Source: Streptomyces aquilus (GTDB lineage: Bacteria; Actinomycetota; Actinomycetes; Streptomycetales; Streptomycetaceae). Taken from it: DNA of 64,000 nucleotides. The position numbers and the translations under genes were made by a program. Below are positions 7,341-48,315 of the stretch, in pieces. The stretch spans positions 5,394,001 through 5,458,000 of the forward strand of contig NZ_CP034463.1 in NCBI RefSeq assembly GCF_003955715.1, read 5' to 3'. Position 1 is the stretch's first letter, and every line of letters begins with the position of its first letter. Below the pieces are notes generated by a model, which made no database searches, was not told where the DNA came from, and saw only the letters and a program-made list of their open reading frames with translations.

Positions 7341-7343
7341 TAA

Positions 7344-8089: not shown

Positions 8090-8110
8090 GACGGCATGAC
8101 CTGACCGGAA

Positions 8111-12716: not shown

Positions 12717-12891
12717 GGCAGCGGAAGTTATCCCCAGGCTGTGGGCGCGAGGACCCGGGCCTGGGGAGAACCCGCAGGTGGGGGCGTACGTATGAGCGCG
12801 TATGCCCACAGGTGTGCGTGAGCGTCCGGGTTTAGGCTCGGACGTAGGTACGAAGGTGCCACACACGCCACAGCAACCTAAGGAACAACTG

Positions 12892-13767: not shown

Positions 13768-13820
13768 TCCACAGGGCTGTTGAGAACGGCCCACAAGCTG
13801 GGGGAGGTCGGCGCCCGACC

Positions 13821-15466: not shown

Positions 15467-17922
<2,456 letters not shown>

Positions 17923-17964
17923 GTCGGTCTCAGCTGACCGCACCAGGAAGGATCTTCACCAGCA

Positions 17965-20559
<2,595 letters not shown>

Positions 20560-33250: not shown

Positions 33251-35332
33251 CAGCGGGGCCGCCTTGACGACCGTCTCCTCGAACTCGGCGGCCGGGTCGG
33301 ACAGGGCGACGATCGCGCCGCCGACGCCGTACCGCAGCCGGCCCGGGGTGACGACGGCGGTGCGGATGACGACGCTGAAGTCGGCGGCGCCGGTCAGGGA
33401 GAGGTAGCCGATGGCGCCGGAGTAGATGCCGCGCGGGCCGTCCTCCAGGCGGTCGATGATCTCCATGGTGCGGGGCTTGGGCGCGCCGGTCATCGACCCC
33501 GGCGGGAAGGCCGCGCGCAGACAGCGCACCGGGCTGCTGTCGGGGCGCAGCCGTGCGGTCACGGTGCTGACGAGCTGGTGGACGGTGGCGTAGCTCTCGA
33601 CGGCGAACACGGGGTCGGCGCGGACGCTGCCGGTCTCGGCGCAGCGGCCCAGGTCGTTGCGGACCAGGTCGACGATCATCAGGTTCTCGGCGCGGTCCTT
33701 CTCGTGTGTGCGCAGGTCGGCGACGAGAGCGGCGTCCTCCTCGGGGGTGGCGCCGCGCGGGCGGGTGCCCTTGATGGGCTTGGACTCCACGACACCGTCG
33801 GCCGAGACGCGCAGGAACCGTTCGGGAGAGGTGGAGAGCACCGACAGTTCGCCGAAGCGGAGCAGGGCGCCGAAAGGTGCCGGGCTGGTGCGCCGCAGGA
33901 AGCGGTAGGCCTGCCAGGGGTGCACGCCCGTCTTCGCCTCGGCCATGTTGGTCAGGCAGATCTCGTAGCTCTCCCCTGCGGCGATCTCCTCCTGGCAGGC
34001 GTCGATGAGCCGGAGGTAGGTGTCGCGGTCGTGGCGCAGCCGCACCTCCCCGAAGGGGGCCAGGGGTTCGGGCGGCGGAGCCGGGAGGGCGCCGGTGAGG
34101 GCGGTGAGGCGGCGGGCGGTGGCGTCGAGCCAGGCGCGGGCGGGCTCCGGGTCGTCGGGCTCGGCGAGGGCCAGGAGGTGGGTCGTACCCGTCTCGTGGT
34201 CGAGGACGAGGGCGCGGTCCGCGAAGACCATCACGGCGTCGGGTTCCTCCGCGCGCGGGCCGGGCGGGGCGCCGCACTCCGCCTTGAGGCCGTAGCCGAG
34301 GTAGCCGGTCCAGCCGAGGGCGAAGTCGCAGGGGAGCGGCGGCACTTCGACGTCGAGGGCGGCCAGGTCCCGGTCGAGCCAGTCCAGGAACGGGCCCTCC
34401 ACGGTCTCCTCGGACGTCGCCGACCGCACGGTGACGGTGTTGGTCGCCACGTCCGCCGTGGCCACCCGGGCCAGCGGTCCCGAGGCGTCGCCCATGACGG
34501 AGAAGCGGCCCTGGCCGTCGCGGCGGCTGCTGTCCAGCCAGAACGCGTGGTCGGCGGCGTGGAAGAGACGGTCGTGGAGCGTCTCGTCGTCGCAGGGCGT
34601 GGGGACTTGGGCGGTGAGCACCCGCAGCGAACGGGCGGGGGTACGGGGAAGGGGCGCCGGCGGCTGGGGCATCGCCGTCTCGTGCGCGGAGCGGGTGTGG
34701 GGAGGCGCCAGCGGCGCCGGGGGCCGGAGCGTCACCGTCTCGCGGCGGCGGCCGACGCCGGTCCGGGCCAGGCGGTGGAAGTTGGCCAGCAGCTCGTCGC
34801 CGTACTGCGAACAGATCGACTCGGGGTGGAACTGCACGCCCCACAGCGGCCGTTCCCGGTGCCGCAGGCCCATGACCACGCCGTCCGGCGTCCACGCGGT
34901 GACCTCAAGGCGGTCGGGGAGGCCGGTGACGGCGAGGGAGTGGTAGCGCACCGCCTCGAACGGCGAGGGCAGGCCGGCGAACAGGCCCTCGCCCTCGTGC
35001 AGCACCGGCGAGGTGCGGCCGTGCCGGGGCTCCGGGGCGCGGCCGACGCTCGCCCCGTTCAGCAGCCCGATGCCCTGGTGGCCCAGACACACACCGAGCA
35101 GCGGAAGGTCCGTGCGCTCGACGATCTCCCGGCTGATGCCGAAGTCCGCGGCGCGCTGCGGGGTTCCGGGGCCGGGTGAGATGACGACGGCGTCGAACTC
35201 CGTCAGCAGGGCGGGGTGCCAGTCCGGGTCGTCGTTGCGGACGACCGTCGGCTCGGCGCCGGTGACGCGCGCGAGCTGGTGGACGAGGTTGTAGGTGAAC
35301 GAGTCGTGGTTGTCGACGAGCAGGGTGCGCAT
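33188..35332 (-). CDS. pabAB: Fused aminodeoxychorismate/anthranilate-type synthase
   Basis: A 714-residue fusion. Residues 1-190 are a glutamine amidotransferase with nucleophile Cys82 (GVCLGHQG) and His169/Glu171 in FHPES. After a Pro-rich linker, residues ~240-700 are a chorismate-utilising PabB/TrpE domain with ESYEICLTNM, RNDLGRCAETGSV and FPPGSMTGAPKPRTMEII, the last typical of 4-amino-4-deoxychorismate synthases. Such fusions occur in folate/PABA supply and in antibiotic clusters that need PABA or p-aminophenylalanine. No PAPA-pathway partner is visible here. It follows a methyltransferase gene by 109 bases on the same strand. Confidence 0.9.
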   Translation of the reverse strand: MRTLLVDNHDSFTYNLVHQLARVTGAEPTVVRNDDPDWHPALLTEFDAVVISPGPGTPQRAADFGISREIVERTDLPLLGVCLGHQGIGLLNGASVGRAPEPRHGRTSPVLHEGEGLFAGLPSPFEAVRYHSLAVTGLPDRLEVTAWTPDGVVMGLRHRERPLWGVQFHPESICSQYGDELLANFHRLARTGVGRRRETVTLRPPAPLAPPHTRSAHETAMPQPPAPLPRTPARSLRVLTAQVPTPCDDETLHDRLFHAADHAFWLDSSRRDGQGRFSVMGDASGPLARVATADVATNTVTVRSATSEETVEGPFLDWLDRDLAALDVEVPPLPCDFALGWTGYLGYGLKAECGAPPGPRAEEPDAVMVFADRALVLDHETGTTHLLALAEPDDPEPARAWLDATARRLTALTGALPAPPPEPLAPFGEVRLRHDRDTYLRLIDACQEEIAAGESYEICLTNMAEAKTGVHPWQAYRFLRRTSPAPFGALLRFGELSVLSTSPERFLRVSADGVVESKPIKGTRPRGATPEEDAALVADLRTHEKDRAENLMIVDLVRNDLGRCAETGSVRADPVFAVESYATVHQLVSTVTARLRPDSSPVRCLRAAFPPGSMTGAPKPRTMEIIDRLEDGPRGIYSGAIGYLSLTGAADFSVVIRTAVVTPGRLRYGVGGAIVALSDPAAEFEETVVKAAPLLALAGTGFADLRQPLPTAAH

Positions 35333-35403
35333 GGAAATCCGGTCTCTCCGCAGGTCGGATCCGTGGGGTGCGGTCAGCGGGCCAGCACGATCCGCGCCGG
35401 TCG

Positions 35404-35481
35404 GCCGACCGGCAGGATCTGGAGGAGCAGGTGCTCGACGGTCAGCCGACCGGCACGATCTGGAGGAGCAGGTGCTCGACG
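35404..35481. repeat. Direct repeat duplicating the methyltransferase 3' end
   Basis: A 37-base sequence at 35445-35481, which encodes the end of the methyltransferase (VEHLLLQIVPVG stop), is repeated at 35404-35440 with one mismatch and a 41-base period. It looks like a recent tandem duplication just past the stop codon. Confidence 0.85.
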
Positions 35482-36173
35482 ATGTCGTTGCCGTACTCCC
35501 CCTCCCGGACCTGGCAGCTCTTCAGGACCCGCAGCTCGCGGCCGGTCTCCTCGGCGATGCGGGTCAGGCAGGGGTGGTCGCCGCGGCTGCTGAAGTGCAG
35601 CAGGGCCCGGCCGCCGGGCGTGGTGTACAGCGGGGCCTGCTCCAGGTAGCGGCGGTGGGTGCGGTAGCCGGCGTCGACGTAGGCGCGTTCGTGGGCGGAG
35701 CGGTACTCGTAATGGTCGGGTCCGAGCACGTAGTTGGAGCTCCAGAAGACGGTGTCGAAGCGTTCGTCGGTGTCGAGGCCGGAGAACAGGTCGCCGTGCA
35801 CGGTCCTGACCCGGTCCGTCACGGCGTGGCGGCGGGCGTTGAGGGCCGCGTTCTCCACCGCCCGTACGTTGATGTCCGAGGCGACGACCGGGGTGTGGCC
35901 GGCCAGGGCGGCGGTCACCGCGATGGCCCCCGTACCGCAGCCGATCTCCAGGAACGAGCCGCCGCGCACCTCGGCGGCGCCGGGGCCGGTGAGGCCGAGG
36001 AAGTCCAGGGCCACGCCGGTCGACGGCGAGTACACCGGCGCGAACACCTCGTCGAGCAGGTCCCATTGCCGTCCGGCGAGGGTGAACACGTCCGGCCGGT
36101 CGGCCCGGTTGAGGGACTGCCGACTGCGTTCCAGGGAGCGCTGATAGTCCTGCACCTGCGGCGTGTACGTCAT
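35442..36173 (-). CDS. Class I SAM-dependent methyltransferase
   Basis: A 243-residue methyltransferase with SAM motif I FLEIGCGTGAIAVTAAL (about residues 74-90), acidic motif II VVASDINVRAVENA, and a post-motif segment FDTVFWSSNYV where PrmC/HemK enzymes carry NPPY. The Asn is kept but the Pro-Pro is lost, so it may be a small-molecule or divergent N-methyltransferase. ATG at 36173 (MTYTPQVQDYQ) is chosen; the frame extends upstream into non-coding-like sequence. It probably forms a two-gene operon with pabAB. Confidence 0.8.
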   Translation of the reverse strand: MTYTPQVQDYQRSLERSRQSLNRADRPDVFTLAGRQWDLLDEVFAPVYSPSTGVALDFLGLTGPGAAEVRGGSFLEIGCGTGAIAVTAALAGHTPVVASDINVRAVENAALNARRHAVTDRVRTVHGDLFSGLDTDERFDTVFWSSNYVLGPDHYEYRSAHERAYVDAGYRTHRRYLEQAPLYTTPGGRALLHFSSRGDHPCLTRIAEETGRELRVLKSCQVREGEYGNDIVEHLLLQIVPVG

Positions 36174-36295
36174 GAGTCCCCACCCGTTCCGGTCGATGCG
36201 CGGCGTCGCACTGTGCGTTGCCTGTGCTGCCGAGCGTGACGGGCGGGACGGACGTGGCGGAAGGTGCTCCGGCAACAGCGCGGGCCCGCCGGTTT

Positions 36296-36310
36296 GGTGA
36301 CCGCACCACC
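36296..36310. promoter_or_regulatory. Operator-like motif, copy 1
   Basis: GGTGACCGCACCACC in the 257-base divergent region between the methyltransferase and the GAF/PucR regulator. It differs by one base from GGTGACCGGACCACC at 39954-39968 and its inverted copy at 40019-40033. The shared sequence suggests one regulator acting on both promoter regions. Confidence 0.6.
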
Positions 36311-36345
36311 GTCGACACCGCTGACCTGCGATTTTGAAGTGACCC

Positions 36346-36388
36346 GGTCAAGGACTGGTTGACCCTCGGTAAAAACCTGAACTAGGTT
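36346..36388 (+). promoter_or_regulatory. Promoter and inverted repeat of the GAF/PucR regulator gene
   Basis: TTGACC (36359-36364), an 18-base spacer and TAGGTT (36383-36388) make a good vegetative promoter. The -35 is the right arm of the inverted repeat GGTCAA-N7-TTGACC (36346-36364), a possible repressor or autoregulation site. Transcription would start near 36396, 20 bases before the GGGGAGG ribosome-binding site. Confidence 0.6.
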
Positions 36389-36430
36389 TTCCGGAACGAT
36401 CTGGTCCATGCTCTGGGGGAGGGCCGCGGG

Positions 36431-38398
36431 TTGCAGACCGGTGGGGGCCTGCTGGACGCGTATGTGCTGGCGATGCTCGACCTGCTGGCCAGAGAGGCGC
36501 CCGCCGAGCGCTTCGAGGAACTGTTGCGACAGGCGGCCGAGGCCGGTGTCGACGGGACGGACCTGGCGCAGCTGACCACGGCCAAGGACCGCTCGCTGGA
36601 GGTCAGACAGCTGTTCGCGCGGCGCCAGCAGCGCGAGGCCGGACTGTCCGCGCTGGTCGACACGGCCCGCGATCTGACGCACCCGTACAGCCTGGACACC
36701 CTGCTGGCGGTGATCACCCGTCGGGCCCGGCTGCTGATGGGCCTCGACATGTCCTGGGTGAGCCTGCACGGCGACGACGGGGTGTCCGAGGTCAGAGCCG
36801 CGGACGGGCACGCCTCGGCGATCACCGTCGGGTTCGAGGTGCCGTTCGCCGGCGGGGTCGGAGCGCACGCGCAGAAACGGTCCGCTCCCTTCTGGACGCC
36901 GGACTACCTGCACGACGACACCTTCGTCCACAACGAGACCATCGACCACGTGGTCCGCTCCGAGGGACTGCGGGCCATCATGGCCGTCCCGCTGCGCCAC
37001 GAGCACTCCACGCTCGGCGTGCTCTATGTCGCCGACCGCAACATCCGGCACTTCCTGCCCAACGAGATCTCCCTGATGGCCTCGCTGGCCGACCTCGCGG
37101 CCGTCGCCATCGAACGGACCCGGCTGCTGGAGCGGACCCGCACCGAGGTCGCCGAGCTGGCGGGTGACGTCTCGCAGGCCATGGACTCCTCGGCCGCCGT
37201 GCGCCGCCTGCACAGCGTCCATCGCGGTCTGATCGACCTCGCCCTCGGCGGCAGCGAACTGCCCGCCCTGCTGGAGCGGGCCGCCGCCGAACTGGGCGGC
37301 CCGCTGCTGGTGCGGGGCGCCATCGGCAAAGATCTCGCGTGTACGGAAGGCTTCCCGGATTTTTTGTCGGGCACCGAATCTACCCGCATAGACAACCGCA
37401 CGGACGGCTCCCCGCTCGACCGCCTGTGCCTGGACGCGCAGGCCGCCGACGAGCCCGTACGCTGCGACGACGGCACCGGCGGCGTGCTCTCGGCATGCCC
37501 GGTCACCGGCGGCACGGAGAGCCTCGGCACCCTGCTGCTGCACGGCGCCCGGCCCCCGTCCGAGACGCAGGAGCAACTGCTGGGCCTGGTCGCGCAGGCC
37601 GTCGCGGTGCAGCTGCTGATGCAGCGCAGTACGGCGGTGGCCGAGGGCCAGGTCAGGGACGAGCTGCTGCACGACCTGCTGCACGTCTCCCAACTGCCGC
37701 CCACCCAGCTCGCGGCCCGCGGCCGCCGGCTCGGCGTCGACCTCGCCGAACCGCACGTGGTCGTGGTGGTCCGCCCGGAAGGCGGTTCGCAGAGCCGGGC
37801 CAACGCCTGGGCCTCGGCGTGCGCGCACCGGCTGTCGGGGCTCAAGTACGTCGACGGCGGCCACATCGTGTTACTGCTGCCCGGCGACGACCCGTCGGGT
37901 GCCGCCAGATCCGTACAGCGCGAACTGTCCGTCGTCCTCGGGCATCCGGTGACCGGTGGCGCGGCCGGGCCGACCACCGCGCCGGACGACGTCCGACGCG
38001 TCCACCAGGAGGCCCGCCGGTGCCTGGAGGCCCTGACCGTGCTGGAGGGCGTCGGCGGTACGGCGTCGCCGAAGGAACTGGGGTTCCTGGGGCTGCTGCT
38101 GTCGGAGAAGCAGGACGTCGAACGGTTCGTACGGTCGGCTGTCGGGCCCGTACTGGACTACGACCACCAGCAGTCGACGGAGCTGCTGCGGACCCTGGAG
38201 TCGTACTTCACCTCCGGCAGCAGCCCCACGCGGGCGGCGGAGCTGCTGCACGTCCACCCCAACACCGTCTCGCGCCGCCTGGAGCGGATCACCGACCTCC
38301 TCGGCTCCGACTGGCAGGAGCCCGCGCAGGCGCTGGAGGTGCAGTTGGCGCTGCGGCTGCATCGGACACGGCATCTGCTGGGCGGCGGGCAGCAGTAG
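36431..38398 (+). CDS. GAF-domain PucR/CdaR-type transcriptional regulator (TTA codon)
   Basis: A 655-residue regulator. Residues ~80-235 are a GAF sensor (SLDTLLAVITRRARLLMG ... GLRAIMAVPLRHEHSTLGVLYVADR), a second ligand-domain-like region spans 275-400, and the C-terminus is a PucR helix-turn-helix (LLRTLESYFTSGSSPTRAAE, LHVHPNTVSRRLERI near 610). TTG at 36431 is used, eight bases after GGGGAGG. Codon 481 (37871-37873) is TTA, so translation should depend on the bldA tRNA, which in Streptomyces ties a gene to development and antibiotic production. It is the likely activator of the block to its right. Confidence 0.88.
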   Translation: MQTGGGLLDAYVLAMLDLLAREAPAERFEELLRQAAEAGVDGTDLAQLTTAKDRSLEVRQLFARRQQREAGLSALVDTARDLTHPYSLDTLLAVITRRARLLMGLDMSWVSLHGDDGVSEVRAADGHASAITVGFEVPFAGGVGAHAQKRSAPFWTPDYLHDDTFVHNETIDHVVRSEGLRAIMAVPLRHEHSTLGVLYVADRNIRHFLPNEISLMASLADLAAVAIERTRLLERTRTEVAELAGDVSQAMDSSAAVRRLHSVHRGLIDLALGGSELPALLERAAAELGGPLLVRGAIGKDLACTEGFPDFLSGTESTRIDNRTDGSPLDRLCLDAQAADEPVRCDDGTGGVLSACPVTGGTESLGTLLLHGARPPSETQEQLLGLVAQAVAVQLLMQRSTAVAEGQVRDELLHDLLHVSQLPPTQLAARGRRLGVDLAEPHVVVVVRPEGGSQSRANAWASACAHRLSGLKYVDGGHIVLLLPGDDPSGAARSVQRELSVVLGHPVTGGAAGPTTAPDDVRRVHQEARRCLEALTVLEGVGGTASPKELGFLGLLLSEKQDVERFVRSAVGPVLDYDHQQSTELLRTLESYFTSGSSPTRAAELLHVHPNTVSRRLERITDLLGSDWQEPAQALEVQLALRLHRTRHLLGGGQQ

Positions 38399-38506
38399 GG
38401 GGTACGGCGGGGTCAGGCGCTCGCTGTGGGCAGTAATAGGGCGTACGGCGGGGGTCAGGCGCTCGCTGTGGGCAGTAGGGCGTACGGCGGGGTCAGGCGC
38501 TGCGTG
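38392..38506. repeat. Three tandem ~40-bp copies at the end of two convergent genes
   Basis: The unit GCAGTAGGGCGTACGGCGGG plus GTCAGGCGCTCGCTGTGG occurs three times, starting at 38392, 38430 and 38472. The first copy contains the regulator's stop codon and the third the last codons of the convergent IS701-like gene. Confidence 0.85.
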
Positions 38507-39848
38507 CCGGTGTTGTGATGGCGCCGGAGGTGTCCAGCGTGCGGGCCGCGTAGGCGACGGAGGCCAGGGTGGTGTGCCGGTGCCAGCCCTTGAAGGAGCG
38601 GCCGACGAAGTCCCGTAGCCCGACCTGCTCCCCGGTCGTGGCGCAGTCCCGGGCCACCCGGCGGGCCAGCTTGGCCAGCCTCAGCAGGGCGGGGACCGGC
38701 ATCCGGTCCAGGTCGGTCAGCCAGAAATCCGTCGGCGGGCGGCACGGGTCGGCCTGCGGGCCGGAGCGGAGCCCGGGCCGGGGTCCGGTTCGAGGGCCGG
38801 ACCGGGGGTCGGGCCACTCGCCGAGCAGCAGCCCCGGCCGCCCGTCGTCCGGCAGCGTCACCGGGACGCCCACCACCAGCGAGCTGCGTACGGTCGTCGG
38901 GCCGGCCAGCGGATCGGCCCACTGGACGGGGCGGCGCAGGGCCCGGACCGAGTCGGCGATCCGCTGCGCGGCGAGCGGTCCCGCACCGAAGCCGGGCAGC
39001 GACGGCTCGGCCACGGTCAGCGCGGTGCCGCCGGGCACCCGCACCAGCAGCGGTACCCCGGCCTCCCGGTAGCGCCGCATCGCCGTACCCAGGTCCGGGC
39101 CCGCCGCCCCGAGGACCACGGGCCGGCGCGGCAGCCCCCACTTGAGCGTGGACCGCACGACAGCGGCCGCGCACTCCTCCAGCGTCTCCTCGCCCGCGGC
39201 CTCGGGGATCTCCGCCCGGCGGCGCCGTTCCGCGTCGCGGATCCAGCCGCCGGGCAGATGCAGCCGCCAGTTGACCGGCGCGCTCGCCTGCTCGGAGGCG
39301 AACCAGAGGCCGAACGCCTGCTGCCCGCTGTCCGGACGGCCCGCGCGCGGCACGAACTGCCGGCCGACGCCCACCGAGTGCTCGCCGACCTTGGGGATGG
39401 CCATCGGCTGCACCACCCAGGCCGCCGGGGCGACGGCGTCCTGGAGCCGCTGGGCCAGGGCCGCTCGCAGCGGCGACCAGTCCCAGGTGGAGGCGGCGAT
39501 GAGGTGGTGCAGGCTCTGCTCGGCCGCCCCGCCGCCGACCGCGGAGGCGATCCGGCGCACTGACTTGCGGCCGTCCGCGGCGAGCAGTCCGCGCACGTAC
39601 TGCTCGGCCCACCAGCGCTGGTCCTTGCGGCGCAGCACCTGCGGGAAGAGCGCGGCGGACAGCTCGGCCACGACGTCCGGCGGCTGGTGGAAGCCGGCCC
39701 AGCCGAGGTCCGCGCCGGGGCGGTCGAAGACGGCTTCACCGAAGTCGGCCTCGCTGAAGTCGGCCTCGCTGAAGTCGGCCTCGCTGAAGTCGGCTTCGCT
39801 GAAGTCGGCCTCGCCGAACACGGCTTCGCTGAAGACGGCTCTGCTCAC
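38493..39848 (-). CDS. IS701-like transposase-derived protein, catalytic residues lost
   Basis: A 451-residue protein clearly related to IS701 DDE transposases: WAEQYVRGLLAADGRKSVRRI, EQSLHHLIAASTWDW, HSVGVGRQF, PVNWRLHLPGGW and FVGRSFKGWHRHTTLASVAYA. The catalytic positions appear lost. The first DDTG is QPMA (WVVQPMAIPKVG), the second DAGYG is GAAGPD, and the glutamate of GLDHFEGRS is Val (LRDFVGRS). No terminal inverted repeats are evident. The N-terminus has six FSEAD-type pentapeptides. GTG at 39848 is chosen (VSRAVFSEA). A domesticated DNA-binding protein is more likely than a mobile element. Confidence 0.8.
   Translation of the reverse strand: MSRAVFSEAVFGEADFSEADFSEADFSEADFSEADFGEAVFDRPGADLGWAGFHQPPDVVAELSAALFPQVLRRKDQRWWAEQYVRGLLAADGRKSVRRIASAVGGGAAEQSLHHLIAASTWDWSPLRAALAQRLQDAVAPAAWVVQPMAIPKVGEHSVGVGRQFVPRAGRPDSGQQAFGLWFASEQASAPVNWRLHLPGGWIRDAERRRRAEIPEAAGEETLEECAAAVVRSTLKWGLPRRPVVLGAAGPDLGTAMRRYREAGVPLLVRVPGGTALTVAEPSLPGFGAGPLAAQRIADSVRALRRPVQWADPLAGPTTVRSSLVVGVPVTLPDDGRPGLLLGEWPDPRSGPRTGPRPGLRSGPQADPCRPPTDFWLTDLDRMPVPALLRLAKLARRVARDCATTGEQVGLRDFVGRSFKGWHRHTTLASVAYAARTLDTSGAITTPARSA
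39725..39843. repeat. 15-bp tandem repeat coding FSEAD pentapeptides
   Basis: Seven to eight copies of a GAAGTCGGCCTCGCT-type unit lie in the 5' end of the IS701-like gene and are translated as EADFS repeats. The copies are nearly identical, so copy number may vary between strains. Confidence 0.85.
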
Positions 39849-39950
39849 GGTGACGCCTGCCTCTCTCGCCCGCTGACTTCTGACGCGTCCCACCCTGCCG
39901 AGCGGCCGGGCGTCCGCAGGAGGTGCCCGGGGAACCCCGTCCGCCCGGCA

Positions 39951-40036
39951 GATGGTGACCGGACCACCACACCGGGTCGCCGACCGGCGGACGAAAGCGC
40001 TCCGCACGGACTCCGGGAGGTGGTCCGGCCACCATC
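39951..40036. promoter_or_regulatory. Inverted pair of operator-like sites in the bidirectional promoter region
   Basis: GATGGTGACCGGACCACC (39951-39968) recurs inverted at 40019-40036 as GGTGGTCCGGCCACCATC, with one mismatch and 50 bases between. Both lie in the 384-base gap 39849-40232 between the divergent IS701-like and adenylation-enzyme genes. A third copy of the core is at 36296-36310. I could not assign promoter hexamers in this gap and see no gene in it. Confidence 0.6.
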
Positions 40037-40232
40037 CGCGGCCCGGCGCTCCCTGTGCCCGGGGGGCGACCTGACGGATTCCTGTGGACCTGATGAGGAT
40101 CACGGACCGTGCTTGTGACACCCCCGGCCCGCTCCACACAGTGAGGGTCGTGATCAACGCCCGGCACCGGGGCCCGACCGCAGGGCGACCGGAACGCGCC
40201 GGGTTCCCTTCACCACCGTCCGGGGGCCGTTC

Positions 40233-41705
40233 ATGCCGTCACCACACCTAGCCGACGCCGTCGGCGCCCATCGCGAAAGACGTGCCGACCGCGTCGCCCT
40301 GTCCTGCTGCCACCAGAGCGTCACCTACCGGCAACTCGACGACCTGACCTCGGCGTTCGCCGACCAACTGGACCGCCTCGGCCTCACGCCGGGTGCCGTC
40401 GTCTGCGTCCCGGCCCACAAGTCGCCGCAGACCGTCGCCCTGCTGCTGGCCGTGTTCCGCAAGGGCCTGGTCGCCCTCGTCCCCTCGCCCGACCTCGGGG
40501 CCGAGGCGCTGGCCCGGCTGAGCCGGCAGGCACGTGCCGTTCAGCTGCTCGGCGCGGACGAGCGGGGCACGCTGTCGGCCGAGCCGATACCGCCCGACGA
40601 GACCGAGGCGGCCGGGTTCGCGATCCCCGACCCCGGCCGCACCCGGCTGCTGCTCACCACCTCCGGTTCCACCGGAACCCCGAAGATCGTGCCCATCCCC
40701 GCCGACGGCTTCACCGCCTTCGCCGACTGGGCGACCCACGCCTTCGGCCTCACCGGCGACGACGTCGCCCTCTCCTACGCCCCCCTCAACTTCGACCTCG
40801 CGCTGCTCGACGTATGGACCTTCCTGCGGCTCGGCGCCCAGGTCGTCCTCGTCGGCAAGGAGCAGGCCGCCGACGCGGGCCGGCTCGCCGAGCTCGTGAG
40901 CGGGCGGGGGGTGACCTTCGTCCAGGGCGTGCCGATGCTGCACCGGCTGCTCGCGCAGGGCCCCGCCCAACCCACCGTCCGGCAGGCCGTGTTCACCGGC
41001 GAGGCGATGCCGGCCGACCTGCTGCCGGCGGTGTTCGAGACGTACCCCGCCGCGCGCTGCCACAACGTCTTCGGCTGCACCGAGACCAACGACTCCTTCG
41101 TGCACGAGGTCCCCCGCACCCCGGACCCGCAGGCCAGGATGCCGATCGGCCGCCCCCTCCCCGGCGTACGCGCTCTCGTGCTCGCCCCCGACGGAACCCC
41201 GCTGGACGGCCCCGGCACCGGCGAACTCGTCGTCGCCACGCCCTTCCAGACCGACGGCTACCTCCGCACCGCCCTGAACGAGCAGGCGTTCACCGAGATC
41301 GACGGCCACGCCCACTACCGCACCGGCGACATCGTCACCCGCGCCGCGGACGGCCTCGTCCACCTCGAAGGACGCGCCGACTGGCAGGTCAAGGTGCGCG
41401 GCATCCGCACCAACCTCCAGGAGGTCGAGGCCGTCATCACCACCCATCCCGATGTCGCCGAGGCGGTCGTCGTCGCCCTGCCCGACGACCAGGCGGGCGC
41501 CCGCCTGCACGCCAGGGTGACCCTGCGCCCGACCGCCGCGCTGACCGGCCTCGGCCTGCGCAGCCACGTGGGCGCACGGCTGCCCCGGCATGCCATCCCG
41601 TCCTCGGTCCAACTCACCGACCAGCCGCTGCCCCGCACCTCCACGGGCAAACCCGACCGCAACCGGATCAGAGACGACCGCATGAAGGAGACCGCGACCG
41701 CATGA
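40233..41705 (+). CDS. Free-standing adenylation enzyme (amino acid-AMP ligase)
   Basis: A 490-residue ANL-superfamily enzyme that should activate a carboxylic acid with ATP and load it on the carrier protein encoded next. Core motifs are A3 LLTTSGSTGTPK (about 139-150), A5 near NVFGCTETN, A7 YRTGDIV, A8 DWQVKVRGIRTNLQEVE and A10 PRTSTGKPDRNR with the catalytic lysine. It resembles NRPS A domains without a condensation domain. By pathway logic the substrate is probably L-glutamine; this is inference, not read from the pocket. ATG at 40233. Its stop overlaps the carrier gene (ATGA). Confidence 0.9.
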   Translation: MPSPHLADAVGAHRERRADRVALSCCHQSVTYRQLDDLTSAFADQLDRLGLTPGAVVCVPAHKSPQTVALLLAVFRKGLVALVPSPDLGAEALARLSRQARAVQLLGADERGTLSAEPIPPDETEAAGFAIPDPGRTRLLLTTSGSTGTPKIVPIPADGFTAFADWATHAFGLTGDDVALSYAPLNFDLALLDVWTFLRLGAQVVLVGKEQAADAGRLAELVSGRGVTFVQGVPMLHRLLAQGPAQPTVRQAVFTGEAMPADLLPAVFETYPAARCHNVFGCTETNDSFVHEVPRTPDPQARMPIGRPLPGVRALVLAPDGTPLDGPGTGELVVATPFQTDGYLRTALNEQAFTEIDGHAHYRTGDIVTRAADGLVHLEGRADWQVKVRGIRTNLQEVEAVITTHPDVAEAVVVALPDDQAGARLHARVTLRPTAALTGLGLRSHVGARLPRHAIPSSVQLTDQPLPRTSTGKPDRNRIRDDRMKETATA

Positions 41706-41980
41706 CGACCACACCGACCCCCCACGCCATAGCCGACGAACTGCGCACCCACATCGCCGCCGAGTACCTGGCCGGCGAGGACGCCTCCGACCTCACCGAC
41801 GACTTCGACCTCGTCGCCTCCGGCGTCATCGACAGCCTCGGCCTCGTCCGGCTGGTGTCCCACATCGTGACCGCCTATCAGGTCCCGGTCGACGACCTCG
41901 AGATCAAGCCGGAGCACTTCCGGAACATCGCCGCGATCACCGAGCTGATCGTCCGGCACTCCGCGCCCGCCGCGGCCTGA
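41702..41980 (+). CDS. Peptidyl/acyl carrier protein
   Basis: A 92-residue stand-alone carrier with the phosphopantetheine attachment serine in VASGVIDSLGLVRLV (Ser near residue 45). The four-helix length and acidic character (DASDLTDDFDL) are normal. It is translated through an ATGA overlap with the adenylation gene, so the two are almost certainly partners that hold the amino acid as a thioester during ring formation. Confidence 0.92.
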   Translation: MTTTPTPHAIADELRTHIAAEYLAGEDASDLTDDFDLVASGVIDSLGLVRLVSHIVTAYQVPVDDLEIKPEHFRNIAAITELIVRHSAPAAA

Positions 41981-42020
41981 CCCCGCACCACCCCCCACCG
42001 AGAATCCGAGGAGAATCCCT

Positions 42021-42395
42021 GTGTTCACGCGCACCGTTGACGAAGTCGCCCCCGTCGAGTGGGGCAACGGCACCAGCCACCGGCTGCTCGTCGAGGCCGA
42101 CCGGATGGGCTTCGCCTTCGCCGTGACCCTGGTCCGCCAGGGCACCACGAGCGCGCTTCAGTACCGCAACCACCTGGAGGCCTGCTACTGCGTCGCGGGC
42201 TCCGGCGAGGTCGTCGAGAAGGACGGCACCCGGCACAAGATCATGCCGGGCACGATCTACGTCCTCGACGAGCACGACCCGCACTACCTCATAGCCTCCG
42301 ACTACGAGGACCTGCACCTGGTCTCGGTCTTCAACCCGCCGATCGTCGGCAACGAACGGCACACCCTGTCCGAGGACGGCTTCTCCCAGTACTGA
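42021..42395 (+). CDS. Ectoine-synthase-like cupin cyclase
   Basis: A 124-residue EctC-family cupin. Glu53 (NHLEACYC), Tyr80 (PGTIYVLD) and His88 (HDPHYL) have nearly the spacing of the iron-binding Glu/Tyr/His of EctC, and LHLVSVFNPPIVG matches its C-terminal core. EctC closes a ring by intramolecular amidine formation and can also cyclise glutamine to 5-amino-3,4-dihydro-2H-pyrrole-2-carboxylate. No ectA, ectB or ectD is nearby, so it is not an ectoine operon. Here it probably cyclises carrier-bound glutamine. GTG at 42021 follows CGAGGAG. Confidence 0.88.
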   Translation: MFTRTVDEVAPVEWGNGTSHRLLVEADRMGFAFAVTLVRQGTTSALQYRNHLEACYCVAGSGEVVEKDGTRHKIMPGTIYVLDEHDPHYLIASDYEDLHLVSVFNPPIVGNERHTLSEDGFSQY

Positions 42396-42444
42396 CGGCC
42401 CGACAGCCCTACGGCGTCACGGTTCGACCGTTCAAGGAGCAGCC

Positions 42445-43578
42445 ATGTCCGATCAGCCACCCCCCTCCGACCTCCTCCACCTGATGGCCCCCTGGGCCGA
42501 CCGCCTCAACGCCGATCTCGAAGGCCTCGACCACCGGGCCGAGTTCCCCCGGGACAAGTGGGCGGCCGTCCAGGACTCCGGCCTGCTGCGCACCCCCTTC
42601 GCCCCCGCGTACGGCGGCCACGGCCGGTCCCTCACCGAGACCATGCGGGCCCTGGAAGGACTGGGCCGCGTCTCCCACGACTCCGGCCTGTCCTTCTCCG
42701 CCTCCACCCAGATCGTGTCCGTGGGCACACCGCTCCAGCGGTTCGGCGACGACGACCTGAAGGAGCGCTACCTCCCGAAGATCGTCTCCGGCGATCTGAT
42801 CACCGCCCACGCCATCACCGAGGAGTCCGGCGGCTCCGACGCGATGAACATCTCCACCACCGCCGTCCGCGACGGCGACCACTACGTCGTCAGCGGCGCA
42901 AAGATGTTCATCACCAACGCCCCCGTCGCCGACGTCTTCCTCCTCTACGTCCGCACCGGCGCCCCCGGCCCGTTCGGCCTGACCTGCCTCCTCGTCGAGG
43001 CCGGGACGCCCGGCCTGGAGGTCGGGCCGGCCATGGACAAGATCGGGCTGCGCACCAGCCCGCTCGGCACCCTCGCCTTCGACGGACTGCGGGTGCCGGT
43101 CGCCCAGCGGGTCGGCGGGGAAGGCGCCGGGTTCCTCGTCCTGGACCACGTGATGAAGCGCGAGGTGCTCTACTCCTTCTCCATCACGCTCGGCGAGATG
43201 ACCCGCCGCCTGGAGGAGACGGTCCGCTTCGCCAAGGACCGCACCCAGTTCGGCCAGTCCATCGGGAAGTACCAGGCGATCTCCCACAAGATCGCCACCA
43301 TGAAGATCCGGACCGAGACCGCCCGCAAGTGGCTGCGGGACACCGGCGCGAAAGTGGAGGCCCGCAAGGACGCCGCCCTCGACCTCGCCGCCACCAAGAC
43401 CGTCGTATCGGAGGCGAACGTGCAGAACGCCCTCGACGCGGTCCGCATCCACGGCGGCCGCGGGGTCCTCACCTCCCACGGCGTCGAACGCGGACTGCGC
43501 GACTCCGTCGCCGGGACCATCTACTCCGGCACCAGCGAGATCCAGCGCACCCGGATCGCCAGCCTCCTCGGCCTCTGA
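42445..43578 (+). CDS. Acyl-CoA-dehydrogenase-like flavoprotein
   Basis: A 377-residue FAD enzyme with the ACAD signatures EESGGSDAMNISTTA, DRTQFGQSIGKYQAI and the C-terminal GTIYSGTSEIQRTRIA. The usual medium-chain catalytic Glu (IYEGT) is Ser361, while Glu240 in MKREVLYS sits where isovaleryl-CoA and carrier-bound prolyl dehydrogenases keep their base. This suggests alpha-beta oxidation of a cyclic aminoacyl thioester on the carrier, giving an aromatic 2-aminopyrrole. ATG at 42445 follows AAGGAG. It lies between the cyclase and the proposed release enzyme. Confidence 0.9.
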   Translation: MSDQPPPSDLLHLMAPWADRLNADLEGLDHRAEFPRDKWAAVQDSGLLRTPFAPAYGGHGRSLTETMRALEGLGRVSHDSGLSFSASTQIVSVGTPLQRFGDDDLKERYLPKIVSGDLITAHAITEESGGSDAMNISTTAVRDGDHYVVSGAKMFITNAPVADVFLLYVRTGAPGPFGLTCLLVEAGTPGLEVGPAMDKIGLRTSPLGTLAFDGLRVPVAQRVGGEGAGFLVLDHVMKREVLYSFSITLGEMTRRLEETVRFAKDRTQFGQSIGKYQAISHKIATMKIRTETARKWLRDTGAKVEARKDAALDLAATKTVVSEANVQNALDAVRIHGGRGVLTSHGVERGLRDSVAGTIYSGTSEIQRTRIASLLGL

Positions 43579-43592
43579 CCAGGGAACCAGTC

Positions 43593-44345
<753 letters not shown>

Positions 44346-44356
44346 GGAGCACCCGC

Positions 44357-45313
44357 ATGACCGTCACCGTCACCGCCCCCGACCCCACCCTCCTCGACAT
44401 CGACGAGGAGGTCCGCGAGGCCCTGCACGAAGGCCGCCCGGTCGTCGCCCTGGAGTCCTCGGCCATCCCGCACGGCCTGCCCTACCCCGCCAACCTCGAC
44501 CTCGCCCTCGACATCGACGCCGCCGTCCGCGCCGAGGGCGCCGTCCCCGCCCGGGTCGCCCTGCTCGACGGCCGGATACGCATCGGCATGACCAAGGAGC
44601 AGCTCGAACTCTTCGCCGCCGACCCCGCCGTACCCAAGGTCAGCACCCGCGACATGGGCATCACGCTGGCCCGCGGCGGCTCCGGCGCCACCACCGTGTC
44701 CTCCTCCCTGGTCGCGGCGGAGCTGGCCGGCATCAGGGTGTTCGCCGTGGCCGGCATCGGCGGGGTGCACCGGGACGCCCCGGACACCTTCGACATCTCC
44801 GCCGACCTCGTGCAGTTCACCCGCAGCAAGGTGGCCGTGGTCTGCGCGGGCGCCAAGTCGATGCTCCACCCGGCGTGGACCCTGGAGTGGCTGGAGACGG
44901 CCGGCATCCCCGTCCTCGGCTACCGCTGCGACGACTTCCCCGCCTACCTGAGCGTCAGCAGCGGCATCCCCAACCCGCACCGCCTGGACGACCTGCGCGA
45001 GATCGCCTCGGTCGTCCTCGCCCACTGGCGGGCCGGCAACGCCACCTCCCCGCTGATCACGCACCCGATCCGCGAGGAGGACGGCATCCCGTCCGCCGAC
45101 ATCGAGACCGCCCTCGCCGACGCCACCGCCGAGGCCAAGGCCGCCGGCGTCACCGGCCCCGCCATCACCCCGTACCTCCTCAAGGCGATCTCCCAGGCGA
45201 CCGCGGGCCGCACCTCGGCCGCCAACCGGTCGGTCCTGCTGTCCACCGCGAGCCTCGCCGGGCGGTTCGCCGCCCAGTTCGCCCTCGAACTGGCGGCGGG
45301 AGCGGACTCGTGA
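44357..45313 (+). CDS. Pseudouridine-5'-phosphate glycosidase homologue (C-glycosidase)
   Basis: A 318-residue PsuG-family enzyme. PsuG reversibly joins uracil and ribose 5-phosphate through a C-C bond, and homologues build C-nucleosides in antibiotic pathways. Catalytic Glu33 (ALESSAIPHGLPYP), Lys94 (KVSTRD) and Schiff-base Lys167 (VCAGAKSML) are kept, as are GIGGVHR and FDISADL. The base-facing segments differ from PsuG (LESSAIP for LESTxI; KSMLHPAWTLEWLET for the KSILD-type block), fitting a different base. It overlaps the HAD gene, and no PsuK kinase is present, so a catabolic pseudouridine role is unlikely. Confidence 0.92.
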   Translation: MTVTVTAPDPTLLDIDEEVREALHEGRPVVALESSAIPHGLPYPANLDLALDIDAAVRAEGAVPARVALLDGRIRIGMTKEQLELFAADPAVPKVSTRDMGITLARGGSGATTVSSSLVAAELAGIRVFAVAGIGGVHRDAPDTFDISADLVQFTRSKVAVVCAGAKSMLHPAWTLEWLETAGIPVLGYRCDDFPAYLSVSSGIPNPHRLDDLREIASVVLAHWRAGNATSPLITHPIREEDGIPSADIETALADATAEAKAAGVTGPAITPYLLKAISQATAGRTSAANRSVLLSTASLAGRFAAQFALELAAGADS

Positions 45314-46008
45314 CAGCCGCCCAGGGACCCGACGCCGTCCTCTTCGACCTCGACGGCACCCTCCTCGACACCCCCGGCGCCATCGCAGGTGTCCTCGCCC
45401 GGGTACTGGAGCGCACCGGCCGCCCCGACGTGGCCGACGACCGGATCCGCGCCACCGTCGGCAAGCCGCTCGGAGCCGTCTTCGCCGAACTCACCGCCCT
45501 CCCCGAGGAACACCCGGACGTGACCACCGCGGTCGCCCTGTTCCGGGAGCTCTTCCGCGAGGAAGTCGTCCCCAAGGCCGCCGACCTGGTCTTCCCCGGC
45601 GTCCCCGAACTCCTGGGCCGACTACGGGCCGAAGGCCGCAGAACCGCGATCTGCACCAGCAAGATCCGGACCAGCGCCCTCGAACTCCTCGAACCCGCCG
45701 GCCTCCTCGACGCCTTCGACGCCGTCGTCTGCCACGGCATGGCCCCACGCGGCAAACCCCACCCCGACCTGGCCCTGCTCGCCGCCCGCTCGGTCGACGT
45801 GCCGCCCGGCCGATGCGTGGTCGTCGGCGACGCCGTCGACGACATGCGGATGGCCGCCGCGGCCGGCATCCCCGCGATCGGCGTCACCTACGGCGTCGCC
45901 ACACGCCACCAACTGACCGAGGCAGGAGCCCGGGCGGTGGCCGACACGGTCGAGGAACTGGCCCAGGCGCTCACCCCCGCCCGAGCCCCCCAGGCACCTC
46001 ACCTCTGA
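45310..46008 (+). CDS. HAD-superfamily phosphatase
   Basis: A 232-residue HAD hydrolase: motif I FDLDGTLLDT, motif II CTSKIRTS, conserved lysine in PRGKPHPD and motif III VVGDAVDDMRMA. The helical cap is of the phosphoglycolate-phosphatase type. GTG at 45310 overlaps the psuG-like stop. PsuG-like/HAD pairs occur in the indigoidine, minimycin and alnumycin clusters, where the phosphatase removes the 5'-phosphate of the C-ribosylated product; the same role is inferred here. Confidence 0.9.
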   Translation: MTAAQGPDAVLFDLDGTLLDTPGAIAGVLARVLERTGRPDVADDRIRATVGKPLGAVFAELTALPEEHPDVTTAVALFRELFREEVVPKAADLVFPGVPELLGRLRAEGRRTAICTSKIRTSALELLEPAGLLDAFDAVVCHGMAPRGKPHPDLALLAARSVDVPPGRCVVVGDAVDDMRMAAAAGIPAIGVTYGVATRHQLTEAGARAVADTVEELAQALTPARAPQAPHL

Positions 46009-46078
46009 CGGCACGACAGACGACGCCGCTGACAGCACACCCGACGGCACGACTACAGAACCAGGCGGTCACCCCACC

Positions 46079-47512
46079 ATGCCCCTACCCACCACACCCC
46101 CCGCGCCGGCGGCGTCCCGCGGACTCCTCGGCGGGCTCATCACCCTCTCCGCGGCCCAGTTCCTCATCGCGCTCGACTTCTCCGTCATCTTCGTCGCCCT
46201 GCCCGACATCAGCGCCGACCTGGACCTGTCCGGCACCGCCAAGCAGTGGGTCGTCAGCGCCTACTCCGTGTTCTTCGCCGGCTTCCTGATCGTCGGCGGG
46301 CGGATCGGCGACCGGCTCGGCGCACGCAAGCTGTTCATGGCCGCGCTGGTCCTCTTCGGCATCGCCTCGCTACTGGGCGGCCTCGCCGCCAACGCCGCCC
46401 TGCTGCTGATCACCCGCGCCCTCCAGGGCATCGCCGCGGCCTGCCTCCAGCCCTCGATCCTCGCCCTGGTGAACACCACGTTCCCCGCCGGAAAGGAACG
46501 CACCCGGGCGCTCGCCGTCTGGGGCACCGTCGGCGCCAGCGGCCTCGCCGCCGGTGTCGTCATCGGCGGCCTGCTGACCAGCCTCTCCTGGCGCTGGACG
46601 TTCTTCGTCAACCTGCCCTTCGCCGTGCTGTGCGTGCTCGCCGCCCCCAAGTTCCTGCCGGGCAAGGCCGAGCACGGCCGCACCACCGCACTCAACGTCC
46701 TCAACGCCGTCCTGTGCACCGCCATGGTCCTCGTCTCCGTCTTCGGCCTCACCCTCGCCGCCGACGCCGGCTGGACCGACCCCCTCACCCTCGGCAGTTT
46801 CCTCGCCGCAGCCGTCCTGCTGGTGCTCTTCGCCGGACGCGAGCGGGTCAGCACCCAGCCCCTGGTCGACCCCGTACTGCGCCGCACCCGCAGCCTCGTC
46901 ATGGGCTGCTCCTCCTCCGCGCTCTACATGGCCAGCGTCGCGGGCGTCGAGTTCTACCTGGTGACGCTGCTCCTCCAGGACGGCCGCGACTACGCCCCAC
47001 TCGCCGCCGGCATCGCCTTCCTGCCGCTCGCCGCCTGCATCACCTTCGGCAACATGATCGCCGGAAAGATCATCGGCCCCTTCGGCGTACGCCGCTCGCT
47101 GACCCTGGCCTTCACCGTCGGCGCGCTCGGCCTCGCCCTGCTCGGCGTCTCCGCCACCCACCACGGCTACCTCGCCGCGATGCTGCCCGGCCTCGTCATC
47201 AGCGGACTCGGCCACGGCATGATCTACACCTCGATGTTCGTCGGCGGCACCCGCGACGTGGACGACCGCAACCAAGGCGTCGCCGGTGCCCTGATGACCA
47301 CCACGCAGTACGCGGGCGGCGCCTTCGGAGTCGCCGCCCTGGTCCTCGTCCTCGGCACCGACCCCGGCGACGAGGCCTTCCGTACGGCGTTCCTGCTCGC
47401 CGGAGGCGTCGCCCTGGCCGGCGCGGTGATCGCGTGGATCGGCTTCGGAACGACCACGGAAGCCACCGACCGGATCACGGAAGCCACCCCCACCCCGGTG
47501 GGTGAGCACTGA
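46079..47512 (+). CDS. DHA2-type MFS exporter (14 TM)
   Basis: A 477-residue drug/H+ antiporter of the 14-TM DHA2 family. Typical landmarks are the first helix ITLSAAQFLIALDFSVIFVALPDI, the loop GGRIGDRLGARKLFMA (motif A) and the antiporter motif C region around GLAAGVVIGGLL. It probably exports the cluster product and confers self-protection. ATG at 46079 follows a 70-base gap, the widest within the operon, so a weak internal promoter is possible. Its stop and the next start overlap (TGATG). Confidence 0.92.
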   Translation: MPLPTTPPAPAASRGLLGGLITLSAAQFLIALDFSVIFVALPDISADLDLSGTAKQWVVSAYSVFFAGFLIVGGRIGDRLGARKLFMAALVLFGIASLLGGLAANAALLLITRALQGIAAACLQPSILALVNTTFPAGKERTRALAVWGTVGASGLAAGVVIGGLLTSLSWRWTFFVNLPFAVLCVLAAPKFLPGKAEHGRTTALNVLNAVLCTAMVLVSVFGLTLAADAGWTDPLTLGSFLAAAVLLVLFAGRERVSTQPLVDPVLRRTRSLVMGCSSSALYMASVAGVEFYLVTLLLQDGRDYAPLAAGIAFLPLAACITFGNMIAGKIIGPFGVRRSLTLAFTVGALGLALLGVSATHHGYLAAMLPGLVISGLGHGMIYTSMFVGGTRDVDDRNQGVAGALMTTTQYAGGAFGVAALVLVLGTDPGDEAFRTAFLLAGGVALAGAVIAWIGFGTTTEATDRITEATPTPVGEH

Positions 47513-48315
47513 TGACCACCCCCGCCGCCCGCCTCGGCATCCTCGTCATCCACAACGACCCCGTGCCCGAGACCGAGATCTGGCGCATGGCCCCTGACTC
47601 CGCCTCGGTCCACACCGCCCGTTTCGAGTGCCCCCGCCCCGCCGACACCGAGTACGTCGGCAGCCCGGCCGCGGCCCTCGCCAACGCCCCCGACGTCATC
47701 CGGGGCCTGGACCAGCTGGGCCGGCTGGGCGCACACAGCATCGCTCTCTGCTTCGGATCGAGCAGCTTCTTCGGCGGACCCGCCTTCGACACCGAGTTCA
47801 TCGAGGCGGCCGGCGCCCACGCCCACGGCGTCCGGGTCTACACCGCGGCCACCGCCATCACCGCCGCCCTCCAGACGACCGGTGTGCGCCACCCGCTGCT
47901 CGTCATGCCGCCCTGGTTCACCGAGCCCACCTTCCGGGCCACGGAGGAGTACCTCGGGAAACTCGGCATCGACGAGACCAGCCTCGTCCAGTTCCAACTC
48001 GGCCCGGAGTGGGACGGCATCCCCCGCTACAACGCCTTCGACGAGGGCGCCCACTGGACGATCGACCCCGCCGAGGTGCACCAGCAGGTCGCCAAGGCGT
48101 TCCACACCCCGGACGCCCCACGCCCCGACAGCGTCCTGATACCCGGCAGCGGCTTCCCCTCCCTGGGCGCGGTCGCCCCCCTGGAACAGGAACTCGGCGT
48201 CCCGGTCATCACCTCGAACCAGGCGGTGCTCTGGTACGGCCTCCAGCTCACCGCACCCGACAGCACCCCGGACACGGCAACGGCCGGGAGCCTCTTCGGC
48301 CGACGTTTCACGTGA
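47512..48315 (+). CDS. Asp/Glu racemase-superfamily protein (maleate isomerase-like)
   Basis: A 267-residue protein of the aspartate/glutamate racemase and maleate isomerase/arylmalonate decarboxylase fold. Landmarks are LGILVIHNDPVPETEI at the N-terminus, IALCFGSSSFFGG where relatives have a (C)TSGS motif, and PGSGFPSLGAVAPLEQELGVPVITSNQAVLW matching the second half-site. The second catalytic Cys is Gly/Ser and the first seems shifted, so the chemistry is uncertain. It might act on a maleimide- or maleamate-like product, or in detoxification; this is inference. Its TGA stop lies inside a parS site. Confidence 0.78.
   Translation: MTTPAARLGILVIHNDPVPETEIWRMAPDSASVHTARFECPRPADTEYVGSPAAALANAPDVIRGLDQLGRLGAHSIALCFGSSSFFGGPAFDTEFIEAAGAHAHGVRVYTAATAITAALQTTGVRHPLLVMPPWFTEPTFRATEEYLGKLGIDETSLVQFQLGPEWDGIPRYNAFDEGAHWTIDPAEVHQQVAKAFHTPDAPRPDSVLIPGSGFPSLGAVAPLEQELGVPVITSNQAVLWYGLQLTAPDSTPDTATAGSLFGRRFT

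What the first reader, a model, noticed from the sequence alone, without database searches (positions are those of the whole stretch)
40233..48315. Nine-gene C-nucleoside biosynthetic operon of showdomycin type
Seen: a continuous co-directional operon, with four- and one-base overlaps at several junctions, encoding an A enzyme, carrier protein, EctC-like cupin, ACAD-like flavoenzyme, transglutaminase-like protein, PsuG-like C-glycosidase, HAD phosphatase, MFS exporter and racemase-fold protein. Known: showdomycin biosynthesis is reported to use NRPS-type assembly of 2-amino-1H-pyrrole-5-carboxylate followed by C-ribosylation by a PsuG homologue; EctC can cyclise glutamine to an amino-pyrroline carboxylate. 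Inference: Gln-carrier is cyclised by the EctC-like enzyme, oxidised by the ACAD-like enzyme, released by the transglutaminase-like enzyme, C-ribosylated, dephosphorylated and exported. The product is either showdomycin or a relative.
Basis: partly seen in the sequence, partly recalled or inferred. Interest (0 to 1): 0.92.

Follow-up and report, generated by a model that had tools for sequence, protein, structure and literature searches.

The report
Compact showdomycin-type antibiotic gene cluster
This Streptomyces carries a nine-gene operon closely related to the known gene cluster for the nucleoside antibiotic showdomycin, and comparing the two suggests which genes form the shared core and which puzzling gene still lacks a role.

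Summary
In detail: nine co-directional genes at 40233-48315 with all nine domain assignments confirmed. I located the showdomycin (sdm) cluster of Streptomyces showdoensis (locus L159): 16 genes in 12,239 bp, a trpF beside it, one protein identical to a protein named S. showdoensis on a contig of the same length. All nine window genes have counterparts there (52-78% identity), and the window groups with it in trees. The other seven sdm genes are absent here; elsewhere they stand with their own aminopyrrole genes and no C-glycosynthase, so they are probably not core. Corrections: glutamine is most likely cyclised before loading (published scheme); the 'racemase-fold' protein R has no cysteine at either classical site; the upstream block (32261-40157) also exists without the cassette. 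R occurs in 19 of 19 loci holding the C-glycosynthase plus aminopyrrole genes (broken in one decayed cluster) and in 0 of 9 holding the C-glycosynthase without them. It probably acts on the ribosylated aminopyrrole, a stage a review calls non-enzymatic. The EctC-like enzyme falls, with 'orphan' EctCs of unsolved function, apart from ectABC-type ectoine synthases. A new member of a known kind.

The parts
40233..41705 (+). A: stand-alone adenylation enzyme (SdmC-like)
   Evidence: Pfam AMP-binding; 59% to the S. showdoensis gene in L159
41702..41980 (+). T: peptidyl carrier protein (SdmD-like)
   Evidence: Pfam PP-binding 22 bits, cut-off 20.8; 52% to L159
42021..42395 (+). E: EctC-type cupin, proposed glutamine cyclase (SdmE-like)
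   Evidence: Ectoine_synth 121 bits; 11 of 12 checked EctC positions kept; 78% to L159; in a clade apart from ectABC-type EctC
42445..43578 (+). O: acyl-CoA-dehydrogenase-like flavoenzyme, proposed oxidase of the carrier-bound aminopyrroline
   Evidence: best solved relative prolyl-ACP dehydrogenase 4irn, 265 bits; NCBIfam prolyl-PCP dehydrogenase 335 bits, below its cut-off of 650; 71% to L159
43593..44345 (+). G: transglutaminase-like protein, proposed release from the carrier
   Evidence: Transglut_core 53 bits, no NCBIfam match; 72% to L159; function inferred
44357..45313 (+). P: PsuG/IndA-family C-glycosynthase (SdmA-like)
   Evidence: Indigoidine_A 340 bits; best solved relative AlnA 4ex8, 257 bits, nearly tied with PsuG at 255; 70% to L159; 44% to the chromosome's other PsuG
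45310..46008 (+). H: HAD phosphatase (SdmB-like)
   Evidence: HAD_2 112 bits; 64% to L159
46079..47512 (+). M: MFS exporter
   Evidence: MFS_1 172 bits; 70% to L159
47512..48315 (+). R: arylmalonate-decarboxylase/maleate-isomerase-fold protein, reaction unknown
36431..38398 (+). PucR-type regulator next to the cassette (neighbour, membership unproven; one TTA codon)
   Evidence: Pfam HTH_30, GAF; TTA; beside the cassette in L003, L004, L005, L006, L009, L010 but also found without it
38493..39848 (-). IS701 transposase-like gene next to the cassette (neighbour, membership unproven; start uncertain)
   Evidence: IS701 transposase model 298 bits; same recurrence as the PucR gene

Best explanation
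The nine genes form a compact biosynthetic operon for showdomycin or a very close maleimide/aminopyrrole C-nucleoside. [quoted passage not shown] A activates it and loads it on T, which would also pull the unfavourable cyclisation forward. O aromatises it on the carrier as prolyl-PCP dehydrogenases do. G releases 2-amino-1H-pyrrole-5-carboxylate. P joins it to ribose 5-phosphate by a C-C bond, H removes the phosphate and M exports the product. R helps turn the ribosylated aminopyrrole acid into the maleimide. Shown here: gene content, conservation and kinship with the S. showdoensis cluster. Taken from the literature (review passages): the SdmA-E steps. Inferred: the roles of O, G, M and R here, and the final product.
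For: Domain content. L159 is the S. showdoensis cluster: 16 genes, 12,239 bp, trpF beside it; its R2 protein is 100% identical to a protein named for S. showdoensis whose longest contig, 525,707 bases, equals that of G310:C12. A review gives sdm as 16 genes, 12.2 kb; another paper puts a trpF close to the showdomycin cluster. Window genes are 52-78% identical to L159. P+H+M+R tree: window, L159 and kin form 9 of 29 rows at 100/100. A+E+O+G tree: window and L159 lie in one 17-row clade of 36, 100/100. The window's E keeps 11 of 12 checked EctC positions; EctC makes ADPC from glutamine slowly and reversibly (passages).
Against: Seven of the 16 sdm genes are absent: DsbA-like, deaminase, two SMR transporters, MarR, R2 and DUF6253; one of them could be needed for showdomycin itself. 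No chemistry was or could be tested. The primary sdm papers (Palmu 2017, Ren 2021) were not held. AlnA is nearly tied with PsuG as P's best solved relative (257 against 255 bits), so P alone does not prove synthesis over cleavage. A's substrate was not tested. The branch that joins all 19 aminopyrrole rows in the P+H+M+R tree is weak, 81/42. In the E tree L159 is not grouped tightly with the window. One relative, G142 (L170), has a decayed cluster: E, O, G and R2 were not found in the 20 kb held and R lies in two frames.
Confidence: 0.87

Rival explanations
1. The operon makes a different C-nucleoside: the aminopyrrole, its acid or a tautomer is the end product, because the missing sdm genes (for instance the deaminase) finish showdomycin.
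For: The window lacks seven sdm genes, among them a dCMP/cytidine-deaminase-like and a DsbA-like protein.
Against: The same seven genes occur without P, H and M in class II clusters (all seven in six of ten loci), so they seem to serve another product. The review calls the last steps non-enzymatic.
Confidence: 0.25
2. The operon is for pseudouridine salvage or degradation: P cleaves pseudouridine phosphate.
For: P belongs to the PsuG family and is almost as close to PsuG as to AlnA.
Against: No kinase gene but A, T, E, O and G in the operon. The genome has another, higher-scoring PsuG (390 against 340 bits). P groups with the S. showdoensis gene.
Confidence: 0.03
3. The cluster makes a non-ribosylated aminopyrrole product, as class II clusters presumably do, with P and H as passengers.
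For: A-T-E-O-G occurs without P in class II, and A-T-E-O in class III clusters.
Against: P, H, M and R are kept with the cassette over three layouts.
Confidence: 0.05

Closest known systems
Showdomycin (sdm) cluster of Streptomyces showdoensis
   Same: All nine window genes have counterparts (52-78% identity); same clades.
   Different: sdm has 16 genes in two divergent arms; the window is one operon without the DsbA-like, deaminase, two SMR, MarR, R2 and DUF6253 genes.
Minimycin/indigoidine-type clusters
   Same: Minimycin too uses a YeiN(PsuG)-like C-glycosynthase (review passages).
   Different: The review speaks of NRPS machinery for minimycin; its multidomain IndC-type build is recalled. 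Here A is a 490-residue stand-alone protein, with an EctC-type cyclase and a transglutaminase-like gene.
AlnA/AlnB of alnumycin
   Same: AlnA is the best solved relative of P; AlnA and AlnB were the queries that found sdm.
   Different: AlnA works on naphthoquinones (passage); here an aminopyrrole is proposed.
Ectoine synthase EctC
   Same: Same cupin family; metal and substrate residues kept.
   Different: No EctA- or EctB-type gene among the neighbours scanned; Ser at the Cys-104 site; separate clade, 100/100 with branch length 1.05.
Arylmalonate decarboxylase / maleate isomerase
   Different: No Cys at either catalytic site: F81 and G212 align with AMDase 74 and 188; the invariant C80 stands one residue before the first.

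Membership tests
Showdomycin-type C-nucleoside cluster | PsuG-family C-glycosynthase paired with a HAD phosphatase | tested here: met
   (sequence only)
Showdomycin-type C-nucleoside cluster | Stand-alone A enzyme and carrier protein (SdmC, SdmD) | tested here: met
Showdomycin-type C-nucleoside cluster | Cyclase for glutamine (SdmE), EctC type | tested here: met
   (sequence only; activity not tested)
Showdomycin-type C-nucleoside cluster | Enzymes for oxidation and hydrolysis on the carrier | tested here: met
   O and G present and kin to the S. showdoensis genes; that these two do the steps is inferred
Showdomycin-type C-nucleoside cluster | Same clade as the S. showdoensis genes | tested here: met
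Showdomycin-type C-nucleoside cluster | Full 16-gene content of sdm | tested here: not met
   nine of 16. The other seven are missing from all 16 class I loci within the stretch held, so I do not count them as defining
Showdomycin-type C-nucleoside cluster | Makes showdomycin | not testable with these tools
   needs chemistry
Ectoine biosynthesis (ectABC) | EctC beside EctA/EctB and within the ectABC-type clade | tested here: not met
   neighbours; tree
Two-cysteine Asp/Glu racemase or maleate isomerase | Two catalytic cysteines at the classical sites | tested here: not met
   F81 and G212 at the two sites by profile alignment; only Cys invariant is C80
Pseudouridine degradation operon (PsuG/PsuK) | Sugar kinase beside PsuG | tested here: not met
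   no kinase among the nine genes
Indigoidine/minimycin cluster | Multidomain NRPS with Ox and TE domains (recalled) | tested here: not met
   A is 490 residues with AMP-binding domains only; no such protein among the nine

The most novel reading that the evidence does not exclude
Two linked readings. (a) Showdomycin-type E proteins and the widespread 'orphan' EctC proteins (Corynebacterium, Micrococcus, Brevibacterium, Pseudomonas and others) form one family of glutamine cyclases whose native product is ADPC, distinct from ectoine synthases. (b) R is a dedicated enzyme that carries the ribosylated aminopyrrole acid to the maleimide, so the end of showdomycin biosynthesis is not spontaneous.
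Probability: 0.3. Interest if true: 0.68.

Novelty: new member of a known kind. Interest (0 to 1): 0.45.

Why it matters
Showdomycin-type clusters are rare (at least 6 of 392 Streptomyces genomes, one of them decayed). A compact, single-operon version lets the true core be tested: nine genes are kept over three layouts, while seven sdm genes look like part of another pathway. It also singles out R as a constant but unexplained gene, and gives a concrete, cheap hypothesis for the orphan EctC proteins, whose function two papers call unclear or unresolved (passages).

Tried and rejected
Upstream block as part of the cluster: the transaldolase-like, aminodeoxychorismate synthase, methyltransferase, PucR and IS701-like genes (32261-40157) follow the cassette in L003, L005, L006, L009 and L010, with identities that roughly track it (the transaldolase-like gene falls to 50% in L009 and L010; in L004 only part of the block matched). 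But all five stand together in a 14-kb stretch of G017 without the cassette (L126), and four of the five in L118, L122, L123 and L124. Those four loci are only 4.9 kb long; that their genomes G060, G009, G014 and G001 lack the cassette rests on the R search, where none had a close R. I treat the block as an independent Streptomyces locus; a regulatory link through PucR is not excluded.

R as a racemase: rejected on the cysteine sites. I could not inspect coordinates, so whether C80 faces the active site is open.

Substrate code of A: not derived; the alignments printed were to linear gramicidin synthetase, and no glutamine-activating reference was compared.

Paper searches that gave no direct help: Trp-like aminopyrrole clusters; showdomycin plus 'ectoine synthase': no paper. 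Primary sdm papers and the minimycin paper were not held. Of the papers cited I saw passages only.

Full report
WHAT IS THERE. The window lies at 5,394,001-5,458,000 of a 10.39-Mb single-contig genome; that it is a Streptomyces is inferred from its nearest named relatives. At 40233-48315 nine genes run in one direction with junctions of -4, +40, +49, +14, +11, -4, +70 and -1 bases, GC3 of 0.88-0.98 and no TTA codons. NCBIfam has no match for G or P. O is closest to prolyl-ACP/PCP dehydrogenases (4irn 265 bits, 5zw0 235 bits). P's best solved relative is AlnA (257 bits), nearly tied with PsuG (255 bits). The same chromosome holds another PsuG (390 bits; 44% identical to P) and another EctC (177 bits) beside genes of EctB and EctD size, so P and E are second, specialised copies.

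RELATED LOCI. A scan of genome contigs with E confirmed 278 relatives and kept the best 80. Mapping the nine proteins on them and clustering gene calls gave four classes. Class I: the full nine-gene set, in the window's order (L003, L004, L005, L006, L009, L010; diverged L026, L053, L056, L057) or as T-E-P-H-M-R-A-O-G (L041, L047, L048, L055, L058). Class II: A-T-E-O-G with a distant R homologue (R2, about 30% to R) and no P, H or M (L007, L008, L011, L012, L014-L018; also L070, where E stands apart). Class III and others: A-T-E-O with TrpD-, TrpA-, TrpF- and TrpC-like genes, or with other partners. Class IV: E without the cassette (orphans). L013 is a hybrid of classes I and II.

THE SHOWDOMYCIN CLUSTER ITSELF. 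A search of 392 Streptomyces genomes with P gave 31 with E <= 1e-95, the window's own included; 14 others were fetched and 16 were not inspected. One, G310 (L159), holds 16 genes in 6775-19013, that is 12,239 bp: R, M, H, P, DsbA-like, deaminase, SMR, SMR on one strand and MarR, A, T, E, O, G, R2, DUF6253 on the other, with a TrpF gene 267 bases away (Pfam PRAI 122 bits). A review, of which I saw passages, gives the S. showdoensis sdm cluster as 16 genes in 12.2 kb and names SdmA (C-glycosynthase), SdmB (phosphatase), SdmC (A), SdmD (carrier) and SdmE (cyclase of L-glutamine) (PMC8724604). A 2026 paper, passage seen, reports a trpF close to the showdomycin cluster (PMC13055916). R2 of L159 is 100% identical to a protein named for Streptomyces showdoensis whose longest contig is 525,707 bases, the length of G310:C12. 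I therefore take L159 as the sdm cluster. Window against L159, percent identity: A 59, T 52, E 78, O 71, G 72, P 70, H 64, M 70, R 60.

TREES. P+H+M+R, 29 rows: window, L003, L005, L006, L009, L010 and the hybrids L159, L013, L170 form a 100/100 clade of nine; the reordered class I loci join at 98/95. Nine P loci without the aminopyrrole set and the chromosome's other PsuG fall outside all 19 aminopyrrole rows, but that outermost branch is weak (81/42). A+E+O+G, 36 rows of 37 offered (L170 dropped, fewer than two of the four genes): the window clade (six rows, 100/98) lies inside a 17-row, 100/100 clade of class II and hybrids that includes L159 (placed at 92/93); L070 is a very long branch.

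WHICH GENES ARE CORE. The seven sdm genes that the window lacks are all present in L159 and L013 and, without P, H and M, in six of ten class II loci (L007, L008, L011, L014, L017, L018); the other four have part of them, one being cut by a contig end. None was seen in the 16 class I loci within the stretch held, nor in L157, L158 and L161. In L013 (S. triticisoli) remnants of a second G and O (43-53% identical, G as an 85-residue frame) lie next to P in class I order, beside a whole class II set, as if a class I and a class II cluster had met and the duplicate half had decayed. The simplest reading is that sdm of S. showdoensis joins two clusters that share the aminopyrrole genes, and that the window's nine genes are the C-nucleoside core. 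Which lineage gained or lost genes is not settled.

E AND ORPHAN ECTC. The window's E keeps 11 of the 12 EctC positions that I checked; the exception, Cys-104, is Ser in all 30 class I, II and hybrid sequences (28 records, two seen twice) and in all 32 remaining ones (L070 among them, which is near a class II set), but Cys in 21 of 23 class III sequences and in the chromosome's other EctC. Position names follow the solved-structure alignment and recall; PMC6344544 (passages) confirms Trp-21 and Cys-104 and says that orphan EctCs often have Ser there. In a tree of 77 E rows (21 of the 32 orphan-type and 18 of the 23 class III loci were used) all 68 cassette and orphan rows are split by a 100/100 branch of length 1.05 from eight high-scoring EctCs and L178. 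I checked the neighbours of three of the eight and found EctB-sized genes beside each. Inner forks are weak because only 124 columns are available, and the orphan rows were found with E as query, which biases them towards E. H. elongata EctC makes ADPC from L-glutamine with very low efficiency and an equilibrium on the glutamine side, and the function of solitary EctCs is called unresolved (PMC5924519, passages; PMC6344544). Against reading (a), the same papers report that a solitary EctC of P. syringae supported ectoine formation in an ectC mutant. If SdmE is a glutamine cyclase, its orphan sisters may be too, and loading by A and T would pull an unfavourable cyclisation. This is inference.

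PREVALENCE. With R as query, 34 of 150 Streptomyces genomes matched at E <= 1e-10, but only the window's genome and G142 at high identity. With P, at least six of 392 (own, G295, G142, G203, G310, G214) carry P with aminopyrrole genes.

JUDGEMENT. The finding is real and its interpretation essentially right. The cluster is a compact new member of a known kind. What is new is comparative: a nine-gene core, a constant but unexplained R, and the orphan-EctC link.

Noticed in passing
L065:6402-16221 (Lentzea albidocapillata subsp. violacea); also L040, L044, L052, L073 and kin: Aminopyrrole genes beside TrpD-, TrpA-, TrpF- and TrpC-like genes, in L065 also a TrpB-like (PALP) gene and a UbiD gene: a possible second tryptophan-like pathway that treats aminopyrrole carboxylate as anthranilate. 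Not found in the held library.
   Followed up: partly
L007:4582-13488, L014, L016 and others: Class II clusters: MarR, two SMR transporters, DsbA-like, deaminase, A-T-E-O-G, R2 and (in most) DUF6253 without a C-glycosynthase; product unknown.
   Followed up: partly
L013:4186-4900: Remnants of a second G and O gene next to P in S. triticisoli, beside an intact class II set: looks like a merged class I and class II cluster with a decayed duplicate half.
   Followed up: partly
window 32261-40157; L126; L118, L122-L124: A transaldolase-like, aminodeoxychorismate synthase, methyltransferase, PucR and IS701-like block recurs in Streptomyces with and without the cassette.
   Followed up: partly
window 38493-39848 and cluster c16 loci: An IS701 transposase-like gene recurs beside class I, class II and PucR loci, as if it were a stable partner and not a passing insertion.
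   Followed up: no
L067, L071, L072, L080: Orphan-type ectC genes in Pseudomonas and Agrobacterium stand near an adenylation-enzyme gene (about 515 aa) and a protein of about 330 residues, hinting at small clusters that use the cyclised glutamine.
   Followed up: no
L041:9022-9948 and L047, L048, L055, L058: In the reordered clusters a weakly ornithine-cyclodeaminase-like gene precedes or is fused to the carrier domain (fused in the gene calls of L041 and L048, separate in L047, L055 and L058).
   Followed up: no
L160, L162, L165, L166, L169: P-H-M sets without T, E, G or R, presumably other C-nucleoside or C-glycoside clusters.
   Followed up: no
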